Position numbers and translations under genes: made by a program. A stretch of DNA of 64,000 nt from Micromonospora rubida (GTDB taxonomy: Bacteria; Actinomycetota; Actinomycetes; Mycobacteriales; Micromonosporaceae): positions 62,001-126,000 of the forward strand of contig NZ_JAAALO010000003.1 in NCBI RefSeq assembly GCF_009908295.1. The letters are read 5' to 3'. Of the stretch, positions 4,135 to 14,593 are shown piece after piece. Below the pieces are notes generated by a model. It was not told where the DNA came from. It did not search any database and saw only the letters and a list, made by a program, of their open reading frames with translations. Numbering within the stretch: position 1 is the stretch's first letter; every line of letters begins with the position of its first letter.

Positions 4135-7100
4135 GTGAGCAAACGGCCGAAGACGGCGGGCTCCTTCCTGTCGCGACTGCGTCGGCCGGCCGGCCGGCTC
4201 CGCGACATGCCGATCTGGTCCAAGCTCGGTCTCATCATGATCGTGCCGACCATCGCGACGGTGGTCGTCGGCACCAGCGGCCTCGTCGACAACCTGGACA
4301 CCCTGAACAACGCCAACCGCTCCGGCGACCTGGCCAACCTCGTCGGCTACTCCGGTGAGCTGGTCAACAGCCTCCAGGACGAGCGCACCTCGGCGGTGCT
4401 GCTGCTCGGGGCCACCGGCGAGCAGCCCACGGCCCGATACCAGGAGTTGTACAACCGGGTCAACGGCCGGGTCGACCAGGCCACGAAGCCCTACCTGCAA
4501 CAGCGCGCCAAGATCGAGGACCTGCCGGCCAGCCTGGACAGCATCCTCGACGGGATCGACCGGAACCTCAAGGACCTGCCCGGCACCCGCAGCCAGGTGT
4601 TCAACGGCAAGCTGAAGAGCATCGACGCGATGCAGGCGTACGAGGGTCTGATCAACGACCTGCTCGCCGTCCGCGACTCCGCCACCCAGCTCGCCGGCGA
4701 CAACGACCTGAGCGACCGGATGCGGGCCGCAGCCGCCGTCGCCCGCGAGAAGGAATACCTCTCGGTCCGCCGGGTCGTGGTGCACCGCGCGCTGATCCAG
4801 CGCGAGCTGACCCCGGTGCTGCGCACCGACTACATCGCCAGCGGCACCGGCCAGCAGCAGGCGCTGCAGAGCTTCAAGGCGGTCGCCAACTCCGCCGAGG
4901 CGGACCTGCACGACCAGACCGTGTCCGGCGGTGACCGGCGCGAGGCGCAGAACTACACCGGCTGGATCGACGGCAACATCAACGGCAGCATGACCGAGGC
5001 GCCGTTCGCGGCGGACCAGTGGGACGCGGCCATGGTGGCCAACGCCAAGCTGATCCGCACCGTCGAGGCGAAGCTGGACGGCGACGTGGTCCGGCAGGCC
5101 GACGGGTTGCGCTCGGACGTGCAGCGCACGGTGTTCCTGCAGACCGGCCTGCTGCTCAGCATGCTGCTGCTGGCCATCCTCTTCGCCTACCTGGTCGCCC
5201 GGTCGATGGCCCGCTCGCTGCGCGACCTGCGGGAGGGCGCGCTCAACATCGCCCGGTACGGGCTGCCCCAGGCGGTCGCCCGGCTGCGCGACCCGCAGAT
5301 CTCCAGCCAGCTCTCCCCGGTCCAGGTGGCCAACCAGATCGCCGAGCCGCTGCCGGTCCGCAGCAAGGACGAGTTCGGCCAGGTGACCGAGGCGTTCAAC
5401 GCGGTCCACCTGGAAGCCGTCCGGACCGCGGCCGAGCAGGCCGCGCTGCGCGCGTCCGTCGCGACCATGTTCGTCAACCTGGCTCGCCGCTCGCAGATCC
5501 TGGTCGACCGGCTGATCGGCCACCTCGACCGGCTGGAGCGCGGCGAGGAGGACCCGGACCGGCTGGCCGAGCTGTTCCAGCTCGACCACCTGGCCACCCG
5601 GATGCGCCGCAACGACGAGAACCTGCTGGTGCTCGCCGGTGCCGACTCCACCCGCGTGCAGCGCGAGCCGGCGGCGTTGATCGACGTGCTCCGGGCCGCC
5701 CAGTCCGAGGTCGAGCACTACACCCGGATCGAGTTCGGGGTGATCGACCGGGACATCGAGGTCGCCGCGCACGCGGTCAACGACATGGTCCACCTGGTCG
5801 CCGAGCTGTTCGACAACGCGACCGCCTTCTCCCCGCCGGACTCGCAGGTGATGGTGGAGGCCCGTCGCGTCGGCGACCGCGCCTCCCTCTACGTCGAGGA
5901 CCGGGGCATCGGCATCAGCGGCGACCAGCTCGCCGAGCTGAACGAGCGGCTGGCCACGCCGCCGCAGGTGGACGTGGCCGTCTCCCGGATGATGGGTCTG
6001 GTCGTGGTCGCCCGCCTGGCGTCCCGGCACGGGGTCAGGGTCGAGCTGCGGCCCGGAGCCGACCGGGGCACCGTCGCCGACGTCACCCTGCCCACCTCGG
6101 TCCTGGTGCCCCGCGCGCTCTCCGGCCGGGTCCAGCAGCCGTCCGCGCTGCCAGCCTCCGGTCCGCAGTCGGCCGGTCCGCAGCCCTTCGGTCCGCACTC
6201 GTCCTCCAGCCCGCAGCCGGCCGGGGCACCCCCGGCCCTGGGTGCGTTCGCCGCCTTCGGTGGCGGCCCGTCGGCCCCCGTGCCGACGCAGCGGCCCGGG
6301 CACTCCGGCAACCAGGTCACCCTGGGCGGCCGGACGTTCGACCCGGCCTCGCGCAACGGCCACGACACGCCCACCCCGGCCGGGGGTCCCGTCCGGTCGA
6401 TGCCGGCCTGGTCCGACCTGACGGGGGCCAGCGGGGTCGGCGGCGGTGACGCTGTCGGCCCGCGCACCTCGAACGGGCAGCCGATCGACCCGCTGCCGCA
6501 ACGGCGTGCCCCCGGCGGCGCCGGCCCGGACAGCACGGGTCAGCAGCCGGTGATCCCTCGGCAGCTGCCGAGCAGCCCTGAGGCCCGGGGTTGGACCCCG
6601 CCGCCGGTCTCCGCCCCTCCGGTTTCGGGCGTGCCGGTCTCCGGCCAGCCGATCTCGGCCGCCCCGTTCCCGGGCGCGCCGGTCTCCGGTCAGCCGTATT
6701 CTGCGGCGCCCGTCTCCGGTCAGCCGTATTCTGCGGCGCCCGTCTCCGGTCAGCCGTATTCTGCGGCGCCGCTGCCGAGCCGGCCGGCGCCGTCGGCTCA
6801 GGGGCCGGCCGCGCCGCCGGCTTGGCCGCCGGTGGCCCCGCCGGCGCGGGAGCCGGCCACCCCGCCGGTGCCCGAGCGCCTCGCAGCCGCCCTGGACATG
6901 ACCACGGAACTGCCGCGGGTGCCGCGCACCGACGGGCCGCCCGGGCCGTACGCCCCGGTCGCCCAGCCGACCCCACCGGAACCGGTCCGGCGGCCGGTGC
7001 CCCCGCAGGCCCAGAACCAGCAGCGGTACGCCGACGAGACGATGGAACTGCCGATCTTCCGGGAGCTCGAGTCGGCGTGGTTCCGCACCCGCCGTGGGGG

Positions 7101-7692
7101 CTCCGAGGAGGGCGCCGCCCAGTCGGCACCGGCAAACGGAGCCACGGACCGGACCAGCAGCGCCGTGACCCAGCAGTTCTCCGCGGTCGACGTCGCCGAC
7201 CGGGCCGTTCAGACACCAGCACCCGGGACGACAGGTAACGCACCGATGGCAGACATCCCGATGGCCGGAGGAGTGCCCCGCGACAACGGGCTGACGACCA
7301 GCGGTAGCGCCCAACGGGGTCCCGCCGTCGACCCGTTGACGGCCCGCCGGCCCGGTAGCGCCTGGCAGACCTCAGCCGACGACGGCTGGCGGGCCGCCTC
7401 GGCGGCCACCGAGGTCCCGGTCGCGGAGACCACCCGCCAGGGCCTGCCCAAGCGGGTGCCGATGGCCCAGTTGGTGCCGGGCGCGGTGGAGAAGCCGACC
7501 GTCTCCGCCCAGCGCCGTACGCCGGAGGGAGTCCGGGGCCTGCTCTCCGCATACCATCGAGGCGTGCAGCGCGGGCGTACCCAACCCGACGGCAACCCGA
7601 CCAGCCCGGACGTGACTCCGGGAGGGCAGCAATCCTCGCAGTCTGGCTCAGGCCCGGTGGCCGGGAGCGGGCAGAAGGAGCAACAACGATGA
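4135..7692 (+). CDS. cvnA: Conservon sensor histidine kinase-like protein CvnA (nitrate/nitrite-sensor-type)
   Basis: An 1185-residue membrane protein. Membrane helices lie at about 31-50 and 335-360, enclosing a helical extracytoplasmic sensor domain of the NIT type (contains [12 protein letters not shown]). HAMP-like and dimerisation regions follow, then a HATPase domain at about 545-660 with N-box ELFDNATAF and G1 box DRGIGI. From 665 onward it is Pro/Ala-rich and disordered, including three 30-bp repeats near 6685-6775. The last 220 residues hold LPIF..SAWF, TSADDGW and [14 protein letters not shown]. The GTG start is preceded by GAGGGCGG. The stop overlaps cvnB by ATGA. In Streptomyces such proteins act with CvnB-D as a membrane G-protein-like complex. 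Confidence 0.92.
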
Positions 7693-8093
7693 CAACTACG
7701 CAGGATCTCGGTTGGCTGCTGGCCAACTTCGCCGACCGGGTGCCCGGTGTCGCGCATGCGGTCGCCGTCTCCGCGGACGGCCTGCTCCTCGCGTCGTCAC
7801 GAGACCTTCCGCGTGACCGGGCCGACCAGTTGGCCGCGATCGCGTCCGGACTGGTCAGCCTGACCCAGGGGGCGGCCCGCTGCTTCGAGGGCGGTGCGGT
7901 GTTGCAGACAGTGGTCGAGATGGACAATGGCTTCCTGTTCCTGATGTCCATCTCGGACGGTTCGTCCTTTGCCGTGCTCGCAGCCCGTAGCTGCGACGTC
8001 GGGCAGGTCGGCTACGAGATGGCCCTCCTGGTCGACCGGGTGGGCGACGCGTTGACCCCGCAGCCGCGTGCGGCTGTGGGAATGATGGGCTGA
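7689..8093 (+). CDS. cvnB: Roadblock/LC7-domain protein CvnB
   Basis: A 134-residue single-domain roadblock/LC7 protein ([40 protein letters not shown] split across strands one and two). Such proteins act as GTPase-interacting scaffolds, like MglB. It overlaps cvnA by 4 bp and is followed after 103 bp by cvnC. It is expected to bind the CvnD GTPase at the membrane as part of the conservon complex. Confidence 0.93.
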
Positions 8094-8196
8094 CCTACGC
8101 GCTGGCCGGTGGGTCAGGCAGGGCGGCAAGGACAACGACGAGGGGTTCCCTTCCAGGGCCCAGCCGGTGTCAGGGACGAAGGAGGTGAGCGGCGAG

Positions 8197-8574
8197 ATGG
8201 TCGATCGTGACGAGCCGACCGGAGCGTTGGTCCGTCCGTACGCCGTCACCCGCGGTCGTACCCGCCCCCGGTTGGACATCGCCCTGGAAGCGCTCGTCGA
8301 GACGACGGTGCGCGGCCGTACCGCTGCCAGCAGCAACGGCAGCCAGGGTCGCGAACACCAGTACATCGCCGCGCTGTGTGACGGACGTGTACAGTCGCTC
8401 GCCGAGATCGCGGCGCGGCTGCAGCTTCCGCTTGGCGTAGCTAGGGTGCTCATCGCCGACATGGCGACGGACGGCCTGGTCGCGGTCCACGAGCCGACCA
8501 TTCTGGACGACTCCGACGACACGGTGGGCACTGAACTGCTGGAGAGGGTGCTGAGTGGACTTCGCAGGCTCTGA
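8197..8574 (+). CDS. cvnC: DUF742-domain protein CvnC
   Basis: A 125-residue protein with the DUF742 signature: LVRPYAVTRGRTRPR near the N-terminus and a winged-helix-like half (ALCDGRVQSLAEIAARLQLP, then VARVLIADMATDGLV). The ATG at 8197 follows AAGGAGGT (8179-8186) by 10 nt; an in-frame GTG at 8167 would precede this site and is less likely. The 3' end overlaps the GTPase gene by 20 bp. It is the third conservon component; the biochemical role is unclear. Confidence 0.88.
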   Translation: MVDRDEPTGALVRPYAVTRGRTRPRLDIALEALVETTVRGRTAASSNGSQGREHQYIAALCDGRVQSLAEIAARLQLPLGVARVLIADMATDGLVAVHEPTILDDSDDTVGTELLERVLSGLRRL

Positions 8575-9169
8575 CATGTCGCACCGCCCGCCCGCGCCGA
8601 GCGGTCGGGTGACGTCGGCGAAGATCGTTATCGCCGGTGGGTTCGGCGTCGGCAAGACGACGCTGGTCGGCTCGGTCTCGGAGATCACTCCGCTGACCAC
8701 CGAGGCCATCATGACCTCGGCCGGCGTGGGCGTCGACGACACCCGGCAGGTGCCGGGCAAGACGACGACCACGGTGGCGATGGACTTCGGTCGTATCTCG
8801 ATCGACCGGGACCTGATCCTGTACCTGTTCGGCACACCAGGCCAGACCCGGTTCTGGTTCATGTGGGACGAACTGGTCCGGGGCGCCATCGGCGCGGTGG
8901 TGCTGGTCGACACCCGACGACTGGCCGACTGCTTCGCGGCCATCGACTTCTTCGAGCACCGGCGGCTGCCGTACCTGGTGGCCATCAACTGCTTCGACGG
9001 GATGCAGTACCACGACCCGCAGGACGTCCGGGACGCGCTGGCGATCTCCCGGGACGTGCCGGTGGTGGCCTGCGACGCCCGGAACCGGGAGTCGACGAAG
9101 CACGTGCTGATCTCGCTGGTCGAGTACGTGCTGACGATGCGCCGCTCGCGCGCCGTCACGCCGGCCTGA
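8555..9169 (+). CDS. cvnD: Small Ras-like GTPase CvnD
   Basis: A 204-residue GTP/ATP-binding protein. P-loop GGFGVGKTTLVGS, switch region with TTTTVAMDFGRI, TPGQ motif (LFGTPGQTRFWFMWDEL) and NCFD in place of NKxD. This is the conservon GTPase class related to MglA. The GTG start lies inside the end of cvnC, so the two are translationally coupled. It probably signals downstream of the sensor; the output is unknown. Confidence 0.93.
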   Translation: MDFAGSDMSHRPPAPSGRVTSAKIVIAGGFGVGKTTLVGSVSEITPLTTEAIMTSAGVGVDDTRQVPGKTTTTVAMDFGRISIDRDLILYLFGTPGQTRFWFMWDELVRGAIGAVVLVDTRRLADCFAAIDFFEHRRLPYLVAINCFDGMQYHDPQDVRDALAISRDVPVVACDARNRESTKHVLISLVEYVLTMRRSRAVTPA

Positions 9170-9178
9170 GATCGCCCG

Positions 9179-9223
9179 GGCAGCGCCCGGCCACCGGCAC
9201 GCCGCCGGTCGCCGGGCGCTGCC
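9179..9223 (+). terminator. Terminator of the conservon operon
   Basis: A perfect 13-bp stem GGCAGCGCCCGGC (9179-9191) / GCCGGGCGCTGCC (9211-9223), whose loop contains an inner 6-bp stem (ACCGGC / GCCGGT). It starts 10 bp after the cvnD stop. No T run. Confidence 0.75.
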
Positions 9224-9317
9224 TGCTGTCCGAGACCGCCCGCCGCCGTCCGACCCGCTCCGCCTCTCGGCGGGCTGGCGGGGTGGGGCCGGCCGCTCGG
9301 GCGACGGGCGGATCGGG

Positions 9318-10541
9318 TCAGGACACCCGGACCCAGCCGCCGTGGTCGACCCGGTAGATGCCGAGGGAGTTGCGGTCCATGCCGCCGTGCCGGATCGGCG
9401 CGAACGCGTACGCCCCGGCGATTCCCTCGGTGACCTGGTTCTGCAGGTACGCCCGCAGCCGACCCCGGTCGACGCTGGCCGCCGACCGGGCCGCGTTGGC
9501 GATCAGTTGCAGCGCGTCCGAGGCGTACGGGGCGAAGCCGCTGAAGCTGCCGTGTCGCTGGATGTAGCGGTACACGAAGTCCCGCCGGGCCAGCGCCGCC
9601 GTGGTGGTGTTGGTGAGGGTGGACCCGCCGAGGCAGATCGGGTGCACCGCGTACGCGCCCTCCAGGGCGGCCGAGTTGCCGTCGGCCAGGGTGTCCTCGG
9701 CGACGCCGCCCGCGTCCAGGTAGAGCGGCCCACGGTGGCCGGCCTGGCGCAGCGCCAGTACCGCCCCGCCGGTGTCGGGGGCGGTGCCCCAGACCACCAC
9801 GGCGTCGGGCTCCGCCGCCACCACCCGTCGCGCGGCCCGCAGGAAGCTCTCCCCGGCCCGGGGTAGCCGGACGACCTCGCCGGGCGGCAGCTCGACGGCC
9901 CGTAGGGCCGCTGACATCGCCCGTACGCCCGAGTTGCCGTGCAGCCCGTCTGCTGCCAGCACCGCGACCCGTTTCCGCCCCTGCGAGGCGATGAGGCGGG
10001 CCAGCCGGCGGGCCACGTCGGAGGCGTCCGGGGTCAGCTTGTAGACGTACGTCCGCTGGGCCAGCGGCAGCACGATCCCGTCCCCGTACGCCAGCGAGAC
10101 GTACGGGGTCCGGAGTTGCTGGGCGACGCCGACGATGGCGGCGGAGGTCTCGGTGAGGGTCCCGCCGAGCAGGGCGTGCGCCCCGTTCCGTTGGATCAGC
10201 TCGGTGGCGTGCCGGGCGGCCAACTCCGGGTCGCTGGCGTTGTCGCGCACCTCCAGCCGGACGGTCCGGCGCAGGTTGCCGACGGGCACACCGTCGGCGT
10301 TGAGCGACTCCAGACTGATCCGCAGGGCCCGCTCCTGAAGCACCCCGAGCGCCGCGCCGGCACCGGTCAGCTCCAGGCTGACGCCGAGCACCAGTTCCTG
10401 GTCGCCGGTCCGGGGCGTGCCGTCGGTGGGACCGTCCCCCGCCCCGGTCCGCCCGCAGGCGGCCAGCAACAGGACGCCCGCCGCAGCCGCGAGCACCCCC
10501 CGCCGGTTGGGTGTGGCCGGGTCGATCGCCGGTGTCGCCAT
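9318..10541 (-). CDS. Branched-chain amino acid ABC transporter-type substrate-binding lipoprotein
   Basis: A 407-residue receptor of the type I periplasmic-binding fold (Peripla_BP_6). The N-terminus carries a signal peptide with lipobox (GVLLLAACG, lipidated Cys near residue 23), so it is anchored outside the membrane. The two lobes can be followed (LVLGVSLELTGAGAALG at the first strand, RLIASQGRKRVAVLAADG in the second lobe). ATG at 10541 is chosen because it opens the signal peptide; a longer frame begins at 10616. No permease or ATPase gene is adjacent, so it may be a sensory receptor rather than a transporter part. It is convergent with the conservon. Confidence 0.85.
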   Translation of the reverse strand: MATPAIDPATPNRRGVLAAAAGVLLLAACGRTGAGDGPTDGTPRTGDQELVLGVSLELTGAGAALGVLQERALRISLESLNADGVPVGNLRRTVRLEVRDNASDPELAARHATELIQRNGAHALLGGTLTETSAAIVGVAQQLRTPYVSLAYGDGIVLPLAQRTYVYKLTPDASDVARRLARLIASQGRKRVAVLAADGLHGNSGVRAMSAALRAVELPPGEVVRLPRAGESFLRAARRVVAAEPDAVVVWGTAPDTGGAVLALRQAGHRGPLYLDAGGVAEDTLADGNSAALEGAYAVHPICLGGSTLTNTTTAALARRDFVYRYIQRHGSFSGFAPYASDALQLIANAARSAASVDRGRLRAYLQNQVTEGIAGAYAFAPIRHGGMDRNSLGIYRVDHGGWVRVS

Positions 10542-10784
10542 GTGCCAGTCGCCTTCCCCACCCCGGCGACACCTGCCGCCGGCCGATACCGCCGGGTATG
10601 TTCCCGGCCGCCGCAACCCGGCGTCAACTTATCCGGGTGTGGGCAGGAACACGCAGGTGGGAGGCGGTTTTCCGGGGATCGATGGCGGTGGCGGGCCGCT
10701 GTCCGAGAGACGGTCTCACACCCGCCGCTCCGGGTTAACCGTTGTCGTCCGGCATGCCGACTGACCCGCCACGGGCATGGCTTG

Positions 10785-10821
10785 CCGACTGACCCGCCAC
10801 CGGACGTGGCGGGTCAGTCGG
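10785..10821. terminator. Perfect 16-bp hairpin downstream of the IS110-like gene, with a direct-repeat copy
   Basis: CCGACTGACCCGCCAC (10785-10800), loop CGGAC, and its exact complement (10806-10821). The left arm also occurs as a direct repeat at 10757-10772. It lies about 45 bp past the stop (10867) of the minus-strand gene and can act as its terminator. The rest of 10542-10866 holds only the lipoprotein promoter region. Confidence 0.65.
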
Positions 10822-10866
10822 TCGGCGTTGCACCGGCGCGTCGGGCCGGATCGGGCCTGCCGGGTC

Positions 10867-13470
10867 TCAGGACCGGTATCCGGCGGACCGGTACTCGTAC
10901 TCCCGGTCGTCGTCGCGGTCCCCGGTGTCCCGGGTGAAGTCCCAGCCGCCGGCCGCTTCCCGTCCCGGGCGCCCGCCGACCGCGAAGCCGCCGATCTCCT
11001 GCCCGCGACGCCAGCCCCGGAAGTAGCCGGTGGTGTTCTCGGCCAGGCTGGCCGCGTCGCGGACGATCCGAAGCGGACGCTCCTCGCGCAGCGGTGAGCC
11101 CGGGACCAGGTTGGCCTGCGGCACCCGCTTCGGCAGCCCGGCCTTCGTCTCGGCGCCCACGGCCGGGCGGGCGGCCTGCTCGGCGGCCTGCCAACCGGTG
11201 TCCGCGGTGCTCGACCATTCGACCTCGGCCTCGTCGTCCTGGCCCACGAACCAGGCCGACTTGGCGGCGGCGAAGATCAGCAGGTCGCCGTCGCCCTCGT
11301 CGGAGATCGGCGGCGTGCGCCGCTCCATCGGAGCGGCACGCGGCGGCTGGACCGGGGCCGGCCGGTGTTCCATCCCGGGCCGGTCAAGGCGGCGTTCGAG
11401 GGTCGGCCGTTCGGGGCGGTGTTCCATCGCGGGCGGTTCGGGACGGTGCTCCGTCCCGGGCCGCTCAAGGCGGCGTTCGAGGGTCGGCCGTTCGGGGCGG
11501 TGTTCCATCGCGGGCGGTTCGGGACGGTGCTCCGTCCCGGGCCGCTCAAGGCGGCGTTCGAGGGTCGGCCGTTCGGGCCGGTGTTCCATCGCGGGCCGTT
11601 CGGGACGTTGCTCCATCCCGGGCCGGTCAGGGTGGGGCTGCGGGGCGGGCCGGTCGGCGCGGGTCGACTCTCCCCGGTCGACCAGCCGCAGCGGCGGCGT
11701 CTCCAGTTGCGGGTCACCGGCCGGGGCCGGCCCCTCGCGCAGCGCCCGGTCCGCCAGCGGCGGCGGCTCGACCAGCCGCAGCATCGGTGGTTCCTGGGGC
11801 AGGTCGTCGGCGAGCCAGGGCGGGGTGACCCGACCGTCGGCCGGCACCAGCTCCGTCGGCGCGTCGATCTGTCGCGCCCCTCGGTCCTCGAAGGACCGGG
11901 CGACCGGGTTGTCGGCGGCGCTGTCGGACGGGGCCTCGGGGTTGTTGACCAACGGCCAGTTCGCCCGCGAGCCCGGGGGAGCGGACTCCGGGCCGGGCCG
12001 CGGGGTCGGGACCGGCACGCTCAGGTCGGTGACGCTGAACCCGCCGGTGGGCAGGGCGGGCTCGCCGGTGGTCTTGGGCCGGGGTGGGATGACGGTGCGT
12101 TGCCGCTCCGCCCTGGCGTGCTGGATCGCGGCGGTGGTCAGCGTGGGCCGGAACGGCTCGCCGGCCTCGGCCGGCGGCACCGAGCCACGCTCGCGCTGGG
12201 CCGGCGCGAACGGGGTCATCCCCGGCGGCGGGGGCGGCGGCGCGGACACCGGCCGGTTGGTCGGGCCGTCCACCATCCGGCGCGGGTCGCCGGCCGACGG
12301 CGGTGCGGAGACGGGCGGGGTGGCGGTGGCGGCCGGGGCCATCGGGCGCGGGGCGATCGGCGGCGGTGCGATCGGCTCCGGTGCGCTCGGCGGTGGGCCG
12401 AGGGGCCGGGGCGAGGGCGGCATTGCTCCGCCGGGGATCGGCTCGGGGCGGCTGCGGCGGCCGACCGGCTCAGGTTCGGTGGGCCGTAGCGTGCGCAGCC
12501 CGCCGGTGCCGCCGAGGCCGGTCAGCTCGGTGACCGGCTCGCCCCGGCGAGCGGCGGACCGTCGGCCAGCCCCCTGGGCCGGGTTGGTGACCCGGGCACC
12601 GAGCGCGCTGACCAGCGCCTCACAGCCCGCGTCGCAGGCCCGCACCGAGGCGACCGCCTGGCGGACCGTCTCCGCCACGGCAGAGGTGAGCGCCCGGCTG
12701 ACCGCCGCGCGGCGCGGGGTCTCGGAGATGGCGACCTGCAGGGCGGTCACCGCGTCGTTGATCTCGTCGGCGTCGGCCACCCCGTCGGCCGCGAGGTGGG
12801 CGGCGATGGCGTCCGCCGCAACCGACATCTCCCGGCCCCGGCCGAGCGTGCCGCCCAGCATGCCGGGCTCGGGCAGCGCGTCGAGCACGGCCAGCGCGAC
12901 CGGCTCGGCCGGGTCCGGGTACGCGCGCAGCGCGGCCGGGTAGAGCTCCCGCAGCACCTCGCGCAGCGCCACGGCGGCGGAGTGCCGGCCGCTGGCGAGC
13001 GCGGCATGGGCCGCGAGGACCTGCTTGTAGCCGGTGAGGTCCCGGTGCGCCGGCAGGGTGACTGCGGAGAGCGCCCCGGCCTGGAGGGCCCGGGCCAGCC
13101 CGACCGCCTGCCGCTCGGCCGGCGGGGACTGCATCTCCTCCAGCGAGTCGTCGTCGGCGAACCGCTCGGCGAAGTCGTCCACCGAGTCGTCGTCGGCGAT
13201 GGCCAGTGGCCGCCCGGCGGCGCTGAGCAGCGAGGTGACCGTGTGGTCGTCGCTGTCAGCCGCGATCGCGGCGCCGCTCGGCCCGCCCGACCGCTCCACC
13301 AGCAGGGCGACCAGCTGGGCGTATCCGGCCGGGTCGTCGCCGATCTCGCAGACATGGAGCAGCCGGCCTGCGTCGTCGACGACAGCGGACGTCAGCGTCG
13401 AACCGGCCGAAGCCGGTCGATCGGCCGGATCCGCTGAGGCCAGACCGCAGTACACGCGCACGAGCGCCAC
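10867..13470 (-). CDS. IS110-transposase-like N-terminal domain fused to a disordered region and a CvnA-type C-terminal tail
   Basis: An 867-residue protein. Residues 1-300 resemble IS110-family transposases by eye: VVDDAGRLLHVCEIGDDPAG, then LLSAAGRPLAIADDDSVDDF, and a middle part with RELYPAALRAYPDPAEPVAL. The expected first acidic residue after YCGL is absent, so catalysis is doubtful. Residues 330-720 are Pro-rich, with about 2.7 copies of a 27-residue repeat (RPTLERRLERPGTEHRPEP type). The last 130 residues (SAWF, STADTGW, GLPKRVPQANLVPGS) match the tail of CvnA. The GTG at 13470 follows GGGAGGAGGA. No terminal repeats or partner transposition genes are seen, so it looks domesticated. 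It is likely annotated only as transposase or hypothetical elsewhere. Confidence 0.6.
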   Translation of the reverse strand: MALVRVYCGLASADPADRPASAGSTLTSAVVDDAGRLLHVCEIGDDPAGYAQLVALLVERSGGPSGAAIAADSDDHTVTSLLSAAGRPLAIADDDSVDDFAERFADDDSLEEMQSPPAERQAVGLARALQAGALSAVTLPAHRDLTGYKQVLAAHAALASGRHSAAVALREVLRELYPAALRAYPDPAEPVALAVLDALPEPGMLGGTLGRGREMSVAADAIAAHLAADGVADADEINDAVTALQVAISETPRRAAVSRALTSAVAETVRQAVASVRACDAGCEALVSALGARVTNPAQGAGRRSAARRGEPVTELTGLGGTGGLRTLRPTEPEPVGRRSRPEPIPGGAMPPSPRPLGPPPSAPEPIAPPPIAPRPMAPAATATPPVSAPPSAGDPRRMVDGPTNRPVSAPPPPPPGMTPFAPAQRERGSVPPAEAGEPFRPTLTTAAIQHARAERQRTVIPPRPKTTGEPALPTGGFSVTDLSVPVPTPRPGPESAPPGSRANWPLVNNPEAPSDSAADNPVARSFEDRGARQIDAPTELVPADGRVTPPWLADDLPQEPPMLRLVEPPPLADRALREGPAPAGDPQLETPPLRLVDRGESTRADRPAPQPHPDRPGMEQRPERPAMEHRPERPTLERRLERPGTEHRPEPPAMEHRPERPTLERRLERPGTEHRPEPPAMEHRPERPTLERRLDRPGMEHRPAPVQPPRAAPMERRTPPISDEGDGDLLIFAAAKSAWFVGQDDEAEVEWSSTADTGWQAAEQAARPAVGAETKAGLPKRVPQANLVPGSPLREERPLRIVRDAASLAENTTGYFRGWRRGQEIGGFAVGGRPGREAAGGWDFTRDTGDRDDDREYEYRSAGYRS
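11358..11630. repeat. 81-bp tandem repeat within the IS110-like gene
   Basis: About 2.7 copies of an 81-bp unit coding for a 27-residue, Arg/Pro/Glu-rich repeat. Copies are nearly identical, implying recent expansion or homogenisation. Confidence 0.8.
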
Positions 13471-13534: not shown

Positions 13535-14521
13535 TCAGTCGCGCCAGTCCACGACCGCAGAGATCTTGCCGACAATGGTGCGCCAACCGAGACTCGCGGT
13601 CTGCGCCCCGATCTTCTTCAGCCGCCGCCGGCCGAGGAAGCCGCCGATCCCGCCGTTGACCGTGGACCGCAGCGCCTCGTCCAGGTCGTCCAGGCTGGAG
13701 CCGGAGGAGAGCATGTCCAGCACAGCGGGCAGACGCAGCGCGTACGCGACGTCCCGGGCCGCCTCGCCGGCCTCGATGAGCAGGGGAGCGTCCCAGGTGT
13801 CGTGTCCGCCGCGCAGGTTCTCCACGACCAGGTCGAGCTCGTAGGTGTCCTCATCGAGGGGCACGATGTCGCCCGGGCTCAGCCGATCGGACAGTTCATT
13901 CCAGCTGTCCAGCTGGGACATGTCGTTGGGTGCGCCGGACCGGACGAAGCTGACCAGCGACTCCGGCGTCTTGAACAGCAGCAGCTTGCCCTGGTGGCTG
14001 AGGAAGACCGGGACCTCCTCGTCGCCCTCCTCGTCGTCCTCGTCTTCGTCTTCGGCGTCCGTGGCCTCGTCGGCCTCGTCCTCGTCGGTCTTGGTCGAGG
14101 AGTCGTCGGAACCCCGGCGTCGGGACTTCCCGCCGTTCTCCTCCTCCTCGGCCTCGGCGAACTCGGCGGCCACCTCCTCGTCGAGGATCACGACCTCGTC
14201 CTCGTCGCCGTCCTCGTCGACCTCGATCGCCTGACGGCGGGCCAGGAACGGGTCGTCGGTGTCGCGGTCGGCGACGTCGGTGGGGGTTAGCTCCCGAGCC
14301 GGCCGGTACGCCCGCAGGGTGTAGCCGGTGCCGGAGGGCAGGGCGATCTCCACCGGGTCGATGCGCACCTCGTCCCAGAGGGAGCGGTCGGCGTCCCGCG
14401 CCGACGGACGCTCGATCTCCTCGTCGACCTCTTCAACGGTGCCGTCCTCTTCGACGGTGTCGTTGGTCTCGTCGAGCTCGGGCTCGTCGGCGTCGGGCCG
14501 TTGGGGCGACTGGCGGGCCAC
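13535..14521 (-). CDS. Highly acidic protein, possible primosomal/DNA-associated family, function unknown
   Basis: A 328-residue protein. Residues 1-190 are very acidic, with runs of Asp/Glu (for example TDAEDEDEDDEEGDEE). The C-terminal ~140 residues are folded-looking: VPVFLSHQGKLLLFKTPESL, then WNELSDRLSPGDIVPLDEDT, YELDLVVENLRGG and a helical end with GGFLGRRRLKKIG. Similar actinobacterial proteins are sometimes labelled primosomal proteins, without proof that I know of. GTG at 14521 follows GGAGG by 5 nt; an ATG at 14590 gives 23 more residues rich in Arg. It is in line with the IS110-like gene and may share its transcript. Confidence 0.65.
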   Translation of the reverse strand: MARQSPQRPDADEPELDETNDTVEEDGTVEEVDEEIERPSARDADRSLWDEVRIDPVEIALPSGTGYTLRAYRPARELTPTDVADRDTDDPFLARRQAIEVDEDGDEDEVVILDEEVAAEFAEAEEEENGGKSRRRGSDDSSTKTDEDEADEATDAEDEDEDDEEGDEEVPVFLSHQGKLLLFKTPESLVSFVRSGAPNDMSQLDSWNELSDRLSPGDIVPLDEDTYELDLVVENLRGGHDTWDAPLLIEAGEAARDVAYALRLPAVLDMLSSGSSLDDLDEALRSTVNGGIGGFLGRRRLKKIGAQTASLGWRTIVGKISAVVDWRD

Positions 14522-14593
14522 GCTGACCTCCGGGTGCTTCGGGTTGCCCACTCGGCGGCGTCTCCGGCTGCCGAGTGACTCTGGGCACATACC

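What the first reader, a model, noticed from the sequence alone, without database searches (positions are those of the whole stretch)
4135..13470. A non-kinase protein carries the same C-terminal tail as the conservon sensor CvnA
CvnA (4135-7692) and the 867-residue protein at 10867-13470 end in the same ordered motifs: LPIF or LLIF then SAWF, a TSADDGW/STADTGW block, GLPKRVP-x-A-x-LVPG and a distal Y-x-RG. Between the ends they are unrelated: one has sensor and HATPase domains, the other an IS110-like domain. A shared tail in two proteins 3 kb apart suggests a docking element for a common partner, for example CvnB, CvnC or CvnD, so the second protein may be an extra component of the conservon. 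The lipoprotein receptor between them could be the input. I see the shared motif directly; the function is inferred.
Basis: partly seen in the sequence, partly recalled or inferred. Interest (0 to 1): 0.78.

Follow-up and report, generated by a model that had tools for sequence, protein, structure and literature searches.

The report
Signalling-kinase tail on a dead transposase
Nearly all examined bacteria of the Micromonospora family carry a protein made of an inactivated transposase-like domain joined to the same short tail that ends the sensor kinase of a neighbouring G-protein signalling operon, and the gene patterns suggest that this tail is a handle for a small "roadblock" regulator.

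Summary
The second protein (P2, 867 aa) is on the MINUS strand (13470..10867), convergent with cvnABCD. Its tail matches the CvnA tail (BLASTP E 3e-9). A tail model made outside Micromonosporaceae finds it in 55 of 55 P2 proteins tested (E<=1.5e-13; best of 1100 shuffles 6.7 bits). The tail contains the LPxR motif published in 2014 for conservon kinases (PMC4316618, passages), so the element is known; I found no report of it on a non-kinase. A P2-type domain is in 119 of 121 family genomes. It is IS110-like and has lost catalytic acids. A SatS-like gene lies upstream in 53 of 55 loci. In 18 of 55 loci P2 is followed directly by its own roadblock gene, a separate clade. Nineteen tailed kinases, from nine genomes, sit with a roadblock but no DUF742 or GTPase gene. 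Best explanation: the tail docks on the MglB-type roadblock and P2 is a kinase-free client or scaffold. Binding is untested. Against: two tailed kinases pair with DUF742 and no roadblock, one P2 paralogue stands alone, and tails show no same-genome matching. New variant of a known kind.

The parts
4135..7692 (+). cvnA: NIT sensor domain, HAMP, HATPase, proline-rich linker, tail
   Evidence: Pfam NIT 1.2e-40, HAMP 1.1e-06, HATPase_c 7.6e-13
7036..7083 (+). CvnA tail block 1 ([16 protein letters not shown])
   Evidence: coordinates from the query placement (C23 minus 62000)
7366..7578 (+). CvnA tail block 2 (ADDGW ... [14 protein letters not shown] ... YHRGVQRGR), contains the published LPxR motif
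   Evidence: profile A1 at C23:69366-69578, E 2.5e-33 (this sequence is itself a row of A1)
7689..8093 (+). cvnB, roadblock/LC7 (MglB type), proposed tail partner
   Evidence: Pfam Robl_LC7 4.4e-23
8167..8574 (+). cvnC, DUF742
   Evidence: Pfam DUF742 4e-31
8555..9169 (+). cvnD, small GTPase
   Evidence: Pfam ATP_bind_1 3.2e-34; GTP_EFTU 3.1e-05, just under its cut-off
9318..10616 (-). substrate-binding lipoprotein, downstream of and co-directional with P2
   Evidence: Pfam Peripla_BP_6 2.1e-37; gene in this place at 20 of 55 P2 loci
10867..13470 (-). P2: dead IS110-like domain, proline-rich repetitive linker, CvnA-type tail
12589..13470 (-). P2 N-terminal IS110-like domain (RuvC-like plus long helices), catalytic acids lost
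11248..11301 (-). P2 tail block 1 (DEGDGDLLIFAAAKSAWF)
10999..11214 (-). P2 tail block 2 (ADTGW ... GLPKRVPQANLVPG ... YFRGWRRGQ)
   Evidence: profile A1 at C23:72999-73214 (also a row of A1); independently by the profile made outside the family, on orthologues, and by BLAST with the CvnA tail
13535..14590 (-). SatS-like gene directly upstream of P2, 64 bp apart, probable operon
   Evidence: NCBIfam SatS 1.7e-10, far under the curated cut-off; PDB 6dnm SatS E 9.8e-08; upstream of P2 in 53 of 55 and 80 of 80 loci (the two sets share some genomes)

Best explanation
The tail is a short, mostly unfolded docking peptide for MglB-type roadblock proteins. CvnA uses it to hold CvnB, the presumed link between the kinase and the GTPase CvnD. 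P2 is a second protein that presents the same handle without a kinase: an IS110-derived domain that can no longer cut DNA is joined by a long proline-rich linker to the tail. In some genera P2 has its own roadblock (Rob2) encoded next to it. In Micromonospora and relatives no Rob2 follows P2, and P2 is convergent with a conservon, so it may share CvnB. P2 would then recruit or titrate the roadblock in response to whatever its N-domain or the SatS-like protein binds. Shown: shared tail, domain make-up, loss of catalytic residues, gene linkage. Inferred: that tail and roadblock touch, that P2 uses CvnB where Rob2 is absent, and the signal. Whether Rob2 was lost or gained was not tested.
For: Tail in 55 of 55 P2 by a model made outside the family and in 61 of 80 named P2 genes, the other 19 being cut by contig ends before the tail (the two sets share some genomes). 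Roadblock gene directly behind P2 in 18 of 55 loci, in 11 genera; no DUF742 or GTPase gene found behind P2 on its strand in these loci. Rob2 is one clade apart from CvnB, support 100/100. Tailed kinases: roadblock next in 46 of 46, 57 of 57 and 48 of 50 tail-bearing frames of three partly overlapping sets. 19 kinase(tail)+roadblock units without DUF742/GTPase in the 10-12 kb fetched, from 9 genomes of 4 genera. One stand-alone tail-only frame before roadblock-DUF742-GTPase (L193). P2 tail alone predicted disordered, mean pLDDT 42.8, with two short helices. CvnA9 was reported to interact with CvnB9 and CvnC9 (Komatsu et al., as told in passages of PMC8510531).
Against: No binding tested. Two tailed kinases have DUF742 behind them and no roadblock (L189, L330) and one has neither (L311). 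A P2 paralogue with the tail has no roadblock in the 18 kb fetched (L235). 37 of 55 P2 lack a co-directional roadblock. P2 and CvnA tails of one genome are no more alike where Rob2 is absent (mean 0.394, n 35) than where present (0.399, n 10; p 0.44), and same-genome pairs are no closer than cross-genome pairs, so there is no sign that P2 adapted to CvnB. The distal helix differs between P2 (TxGYFRGW) and CvnA (LLSAYHRGV) in both groups. The tail profile misses 2 of the 5 DUF742 loci of the own genome, and 13 of 22 kinase cores elsewhere.
Confidence: 0.55

Rival explanations
1. The tail acts on the GTPase: the arginine of LPxR serves as a finger in trans for CvnD, and P2 is a second such activator.
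For: PMC4316618 points out the conserved arginine and the lack of an arginine finger in these MglA/MglB groups, but is itself cautious (passages).
Against: The tail is kept in 19 kinase units and 8 P2/Rob2 loci without a GTPase gene in the stretch fetched; GTPases encoded elsewhere could still be the target.
Confidence: 0.15
2. The tail docks on the DUF742 protein CvnC rather than on the roadblock.
For: L189 and L330: tailed kinase followed by DUF742 without roadblock. CvnA9-CvnC9 interaction reported (passage in PMC8510531).
Against: No DUF742 gene found behind P2 on its strand in 55 loci; 19 tailed kinases have a roadblock but no DUF742 near; L334 has DUF742, no roadblock and no tail.
Confidence: 0.1
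3. The tail docks on a protein outside the conservon (membrane, cytoskeleton, export machinery), and the roadblock linkage reflects operon history only.
For: L235 P2 paralogue without roadblock linkage; SatS-like gene upstream of P2 in 53 of 55 loci; no same-genome matching of tails.
Against: Two unrelated head domains with the same tail each have a roadblock neighbour in many loci.
Confidence: 0.15
4. P2's tail is a relic of a fusion with a cvnA end and has no function.
For: P2 has no known function.
Against: Tail kept in 55 of 55 P2; 79 of 144 tail positions are invariant among 51 close orthologues, while the linker differs visibly in length and sequence.
Confidence: 0.05

Closest known systems
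Conservons / actinobacterial G protein systems (cvnABCD), with the LPxR C-terminal extension of their kinases (PMC4316618)
   Same: The window has a complete cvnABCD; its CvnA tail contains GLPKR; P2 carries the same tail.
   Different: P2 has no sensor, HAMP or ATPase match, is convergent with cvnABCD, and has its own roadblock in 18 of 55 loci. The 2014 passages I saw describe the motif on kinases only.
CvnE (P450) and CvnF (GAF) accessory proteins (PMC13343842)
   Same: Extra protein linked to a conservon.
   Different: No P450 or GAF match; not in the cvn operon; the paper links CvnE/F to kinases lacking a sensor domain, but this CvnA has a NIT domain.
IS110 transposases and box C/D Nop5
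   Same: N-domain sequence and, at low confidence, predicted fold; Nop5 likewise has an inactive RuvC (PMC12045711, passages).
   Different: Catalytic acids lost; no other Pfam match in the full protein; one copy in the own genome, fixed synteny; linker and tail added; no known guide RNA family found.
SatS export chaperone (PMC6333443, passages)
   Same: The upstream gene matches the SatS C-domain structure 6dnm.
   Different: Weak (E 9.8e-08), far below the NCBIfam cut-off (40.5 against 700 bits).

Membership tests
Conservon kinase CvnA (for P2) | HATPase / histidine-kinase core | tested here: not met
   No Pfam or NCBIfam match at E<=0.1
Conservon kinase CvnA (for P2) | C-terminal LPxR extension | tested here: met
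   Profile made outside the family, 55 of 55
Conservon kinase CvnA (for P2) | Followed by a roadblock gene on the same strand | tested here: inconclusive
   18 of 55 P2 loci yes, 37 no; not in the window
CvnE/CvnF accessory proteins | P450 or GAF domain | tested here: not met
CvnE/CvnF accessory proteins | Gene in the cvn operon, same strand | tested here: not met
   P2 convergent with the conservon in every locus where both were seen
IS110 transposase | Sequence match to DEDD_Tnp_IS110 | tested here: met
   7 of 13 orthologue domains at E<=1, best 1.2e-10; the window domain itself only 0.05; hhalign 98.6%
IS110 transposase | DEDD catalytic acids | tested here: not met
   In a MAFFT alignment the first D is kept in 0 of 55 P2; the E column is D in 48 and E in 2; the third D is kept in 4 and the fourth in 3 of 55; the 14 IS110 frames keep all four but for one gap in the first column
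IS110 transposase | C-terminal transposase domain (PF02371, recalled as the second IS110 domain) | tested here: inconclusive
   No match in the full window P2 at E<=0.1; orthologues scanned only over the N-domain
IS110 transposase | Mobility (varying sites, copies) | tested here: not met
   One copy in the own genome; SatS neighbour in 53 of 55 and 80 of 80 loci
Roadblock-docking tail | Physical binding to CvnB or Rob2 | not testable with these tools
   No complex prediction possible for the sequences allowed (no in-frame natural fusion among the accepted loci)

The most novel reading that the evidence does not exclude
P2 is a new kind of input to roadblock-based signalling: an exapted, catalytically dead relative of RNA-guided recombinases (IS110/Nop lineage) that presents, probably as a dimer through its long helices, the same handle as a sensor kinase to a dedicated roadblock. 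The tail would be a general roadblock adaptor that has been placed on different heads (sensor kinase, dead recombinase, none), and roadblocks would have outputs that do not need the conservon GTPase.
Probability: 0.3. Interest if true: 0.82.

Novelty: new variant of a known kind. Interest (0 to 1): 0.62.

Why it matters
The LPxR tail of conservon kinases was noted in 2014 and its role left open (PMC4316618, passages). A natural protein with the tail but no kinase, and tailed kinases that have a roadblock but neither GTPase nor DUF742 gene near, separate the candidate partners and make the question testable. It would also give conservon signalling a second, kinase-free entry point in most members of a family known (recalled) for antibiotic producers, and is a case of an inactivated transposase domain taken into a signalling protein.

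Tried and rejected
Single-gene coincidence or low complexity: rejected. P2 outside Micromonosporaceae: the class search with the broad N-domain profile matched 24 of 197 genomes, 3 of them the genus itself; none of the 17 loci fetched (L245-L261) showed the tail, and most hold frames of IS110 length. The order search with one sequence gave transposase-like frames without tail outside the family. Rfam: nothing but a chance miRNA match at E 0.44, so no known guide RNA family near P2; the P2-lipoprotein intergenic alignment used only 3 sequences. AlphaFold of the N-domain is poor (mean pLDDT 58.4). Its structure matches are at the level the tool calls common: SSU-processome and box C/D RNP chains (Nop5, Nop56/58 named in some titles) at Z about 9, mostly with rmsd 17-26, one with rmsd 2.7 over 123 residues; ISCro4 9t56 Z 7.8; IS621 8wt6 Z 7.5 over 68 residues; retroviral integrases Z about 6. 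They agree with the sequence evidence but add little. Sequence search of the PDB with the N-domain profile found nothing at E<=1. The test for matching of P2 and CvnA tails was negative. It was not tried with other loci. under-counted Rob2 (16 of 55) because it used frame ends; one search repeats the count on match coordinates (18 of 55). The frame filter gave a next gene for 15 of 19 two-gene units; 10 of the 15 were scanned.

Full report
Observation. CvnA (4135-7692, +) and the protein I call P2 end in the same ordered motifs. P2 is on the minus strand, 13470..10867; the + strand of the stated interval does not encode it. BLASTP of the two proteins gives one significant block, 30/76 identities, E 3e-9. 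In the own genome (7.47 Mb, 37 contigs) the CvnA tail finds itself, a second CvnA (C12) and P2 (4.6e-8). Profile A1, made from six tails of both kinds and including these three, finds six places in the own genome at E<=0.01: P2, four conservon-type kinases (one of them, at C3, in a two-gene unit) and one chance frame (L310). The own genome has five DUF742 loci; the tail profile reports a tail at three of them and not at C12:199038 or C12:919283.

Independent test. I built a profile from up to 47 tail segments of other families (L049-L075 and L189-L205; a few genes are in it twice, one is the kinase-less L193, and segments of 55 residues or less were dropped). It finds the tail in 55 of 55 P2 proteins at E 1.5e-13 or better, lowest score 49.3 bits. 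Of 1100 shuffled P2 sequences the best reaches 6.7 bits. The six tails of A1 have no Pfam match.

Organism and spread. The nearest named relatives are Micromonospora, Salinispora, Plantactinospora and Phytohabitans, so the window is from a Micromonospora-like genome. The N-domain profile finds P2-type domains in 119 of 121 genomes of the family, 43 of 44 genera. I fetched and annotated 55 of these places (16, 39; about one per genus for the second set, so not all independent). In 197 class genomes the broader profile matches 24, of which 3 are the genus itself; none of the 17 other loci looked at has the tail. P2 therefore looks family-specific.

What P2 is. The window P2 has no Pfam or NCBIfam match at E<=0.1, but 7 of 13 orthologue domains match DEDD_Tnp_IS110 at E<=1 (best 1.2e-10; window domain 0.05), and hhalign of the profile with an IS110 transposase aligns 192 columns at 98.6% probability. 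At the four catalytic columns, 14 IS110 frames keep D, E, D, D (one gap in the first). P2 keeps the first D in 0 of 55; the E column is D in 48 and E in 2; the third D is kept in 4 and the fourth in 3 of 55. The predicted topology is beta-beta-beta-alpha-beta followed by long helices, at low confidence (mean pLDDT 58.4). The structure comparison lists box C/D and SSU-processome chains, ISCro4 and IS621 near the top, at Z values that can be common arrangements. PMC12045711 (passages) links IS110 and Nop and says that the RuvC of the box C/D protein is inactive and recruits another protein. I use this as an analogy only.

Neighbourhood. SatS-like gene, then P2, is found in 53 of 55 loci and in all 80 named loci; the two sets share some genomes. 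In the window the two genes are 64 bp apart on one strand. The SatS relation is weak but also seen against the solved C-domain (6dnm, E 9.8e-08). The conservon is convergent with P2. A conservon lies in the fetched stretch in 36 of 37 P2 loci without Rob2 and in 10 of 18 with Rob2 (Fisher p 2.6e-4, not corrected for kinship). The lipoprotein gene stands behind P2 at 20 of 55 loci.

A second roadblock. In 18 of 55 P2 loci a roadblock gene follows P2 on the same strand; the roadblock match begins 22-149 bp after the P2 frame. By the labels they belong to 11 genera, five of the loci to one genus and three to another. These Rob2 proteins form one side of a branch with support 100/100, apart from 46 CvnB and 49 other conservon-type roadblocks (few columns, many unresolved forks). 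No DUF742 or GTPase gene was found behind P2 on its strand (single-sequence models). PMC4316618 (passages) mentions a small clade of actinobacterial MglB proteins that are orphans and not flanked by conservon genes; whether it is Rob2 I did not test.

Which partner? Among tail-bearing frames other than P2, the roadblock is next in 46 of 46 (P2 loci), 57 of 57 (named loci; in three the locus end hides the kinase) and 48 of 50 (other tail hits; 13 are cut before the kinase core, one is the kinase-less L193, some genes are counted twice; the two misses are one cut locus and one with DUF742 instead). The first two sets share genomes, so the numbers must not be added. I then fetched 20 stretches picked from the tail hits of ten genomes. 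Eighteen are two-gene units of tailed kinase plus roadblock without DUF742 or GTPase in about 10 kb, one is a tailed kinase without roadblock (L311), one is a chance frame (L310); L187 is a nineteenth two-gene unit. The 19 come from nine genomes of four genera, five genomes being of one genus. The check used profiles made from 85 DUF742 and 88 GTPase segments. L193 has a tail-only frame of up to 170 residues before roadblock, DUF742 and GTPase genes, with no kinase core found upstream in the stretch fetched. Against this: L189 and L330 have tailed kinase plus DUF742 and no roadblock, and the P2 paralogue L235 stands alone.

How general is the tail? In three genomes of other families 24 DUF742 places were found; I fetched 20 stretches that cover 22 of them and counted 22 CvnA cores; 9 carry the tail at E<0.05. 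By eye, 9 of the other 13 still show LPxR in the last 130 residues of the frame and 4 do not. So the motif core is wider than my profile, but not universal.

Mechanism. Published work seen here: CvnB-type MfpD is a GAP and MfpC probably a GEF for the small GTPase, and CvnB8 was proposed to connect the kinase with CvnC/D (PMC13343842, abstract, introduction and passages). CvnA9 interacts with CvnB9 and CvnC9 (Komatsu et al., as reported in PMC8510531, passages). PMC4316618 describes the LPxR extension and is cautious about its role. Putting the gene patterns beside these, the simplest reading is a docking peptide for the roadblock. Alone the P2 tail is predicted disordered with short helices in the DxGWQAAEQAA and distal segments, as expected for a peptide that folds on its partner. 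Histidine kinases are dimers (recalled); MglB is dimeric (passage of PMC4316618) and so is MfpD (abstract start of PMC13015309 in the listing); Nop5 and TasR dimerise through a coiled coil (PMC12045711, passages). P2 may likewise present two tails. That step is inference.

Results against. P2 and CvnA tails of the same genome are no more alike where Rob2 is absent (0.394, n 35) than where it is present (0.399, n 10; p 0.44), nor more alike than tails of different genomes (0.396 and 0.395). I see no adaptation of P2 to CvnB. The distal helices of the two tails remain distinct in both groups, so the two may serve different roadblocks or different sites.

Novelty. The tail itself is known in print as an LPxR extension. 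I found no report of it on a non-kinase, nor of P2, in the searches (open-access library only; listings, with passages or sections of five papers). I rate this as a new variant of a known kind.

Noticed in passing
L294-L309, L312, L313, L187 (own genome: L309, G000:C3): Two-gene units of tailed conservon-type kinase plus roadblock without DUF742 or GTPase. Of 10 downstream genes scanned, 4 are cytochrome oxidase subunit I (L301, L304, L308, L312), 3 are Peripla_BP_6 binding proteins (L294, L299, L313), 1 a branched-chain amino-acid permease (L187), 1 beta-lactamase-like (L300), 1 unmatched (L298).
   Followed up: partly
window 9318-10616; L045; L198; L294; L299; L313: Peripla_BP_6-type or similar binding proteins recur beside tailed kinases, also at the second conservon of the own genome (L045, 28% identity to the window lipoprotein; L198); a possible ligand-binding input.
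   Followed up: partly
L193 5740-6249 (+): Tail-only reading frame before roadblock, DUF742 and GTPase genes; upstream lie a terpene-cyclase-like and a P450-like frame (named by eye) in place of a kinase.
   Followed up: partly
L235 8094-9524 (+): P2 paralogue (476 aa, tail and IS110-like domain) in a genome that also has a longer P2; no SatS, roadblock or conservon found in the 18 kb fetched.
   Followed up: partly
L334 2703-4733 (+); L330; L189: Conservon-type kinases followed by DUF742 without roadblock; L334 has no tail match, L330 and L189 have one.
   Followed up: no
window about 11380-11640 (-): P2 linker holds near-identical repeats (HRPERPTLERRLERPGTEHRPEPPAME). 19 of 80 named contigs end within 351 bp of the P2 N-domain, so this gene often breaks assemblies.
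   Followed up: no
window 10636-10658 (-): ACCTGCGTGTTCCTGCCCACACC between P2 and the lipoprotein gene, partly kept in the two relatives aligned, single in the window; maybe an operator or promoter part.
   Followed up: no
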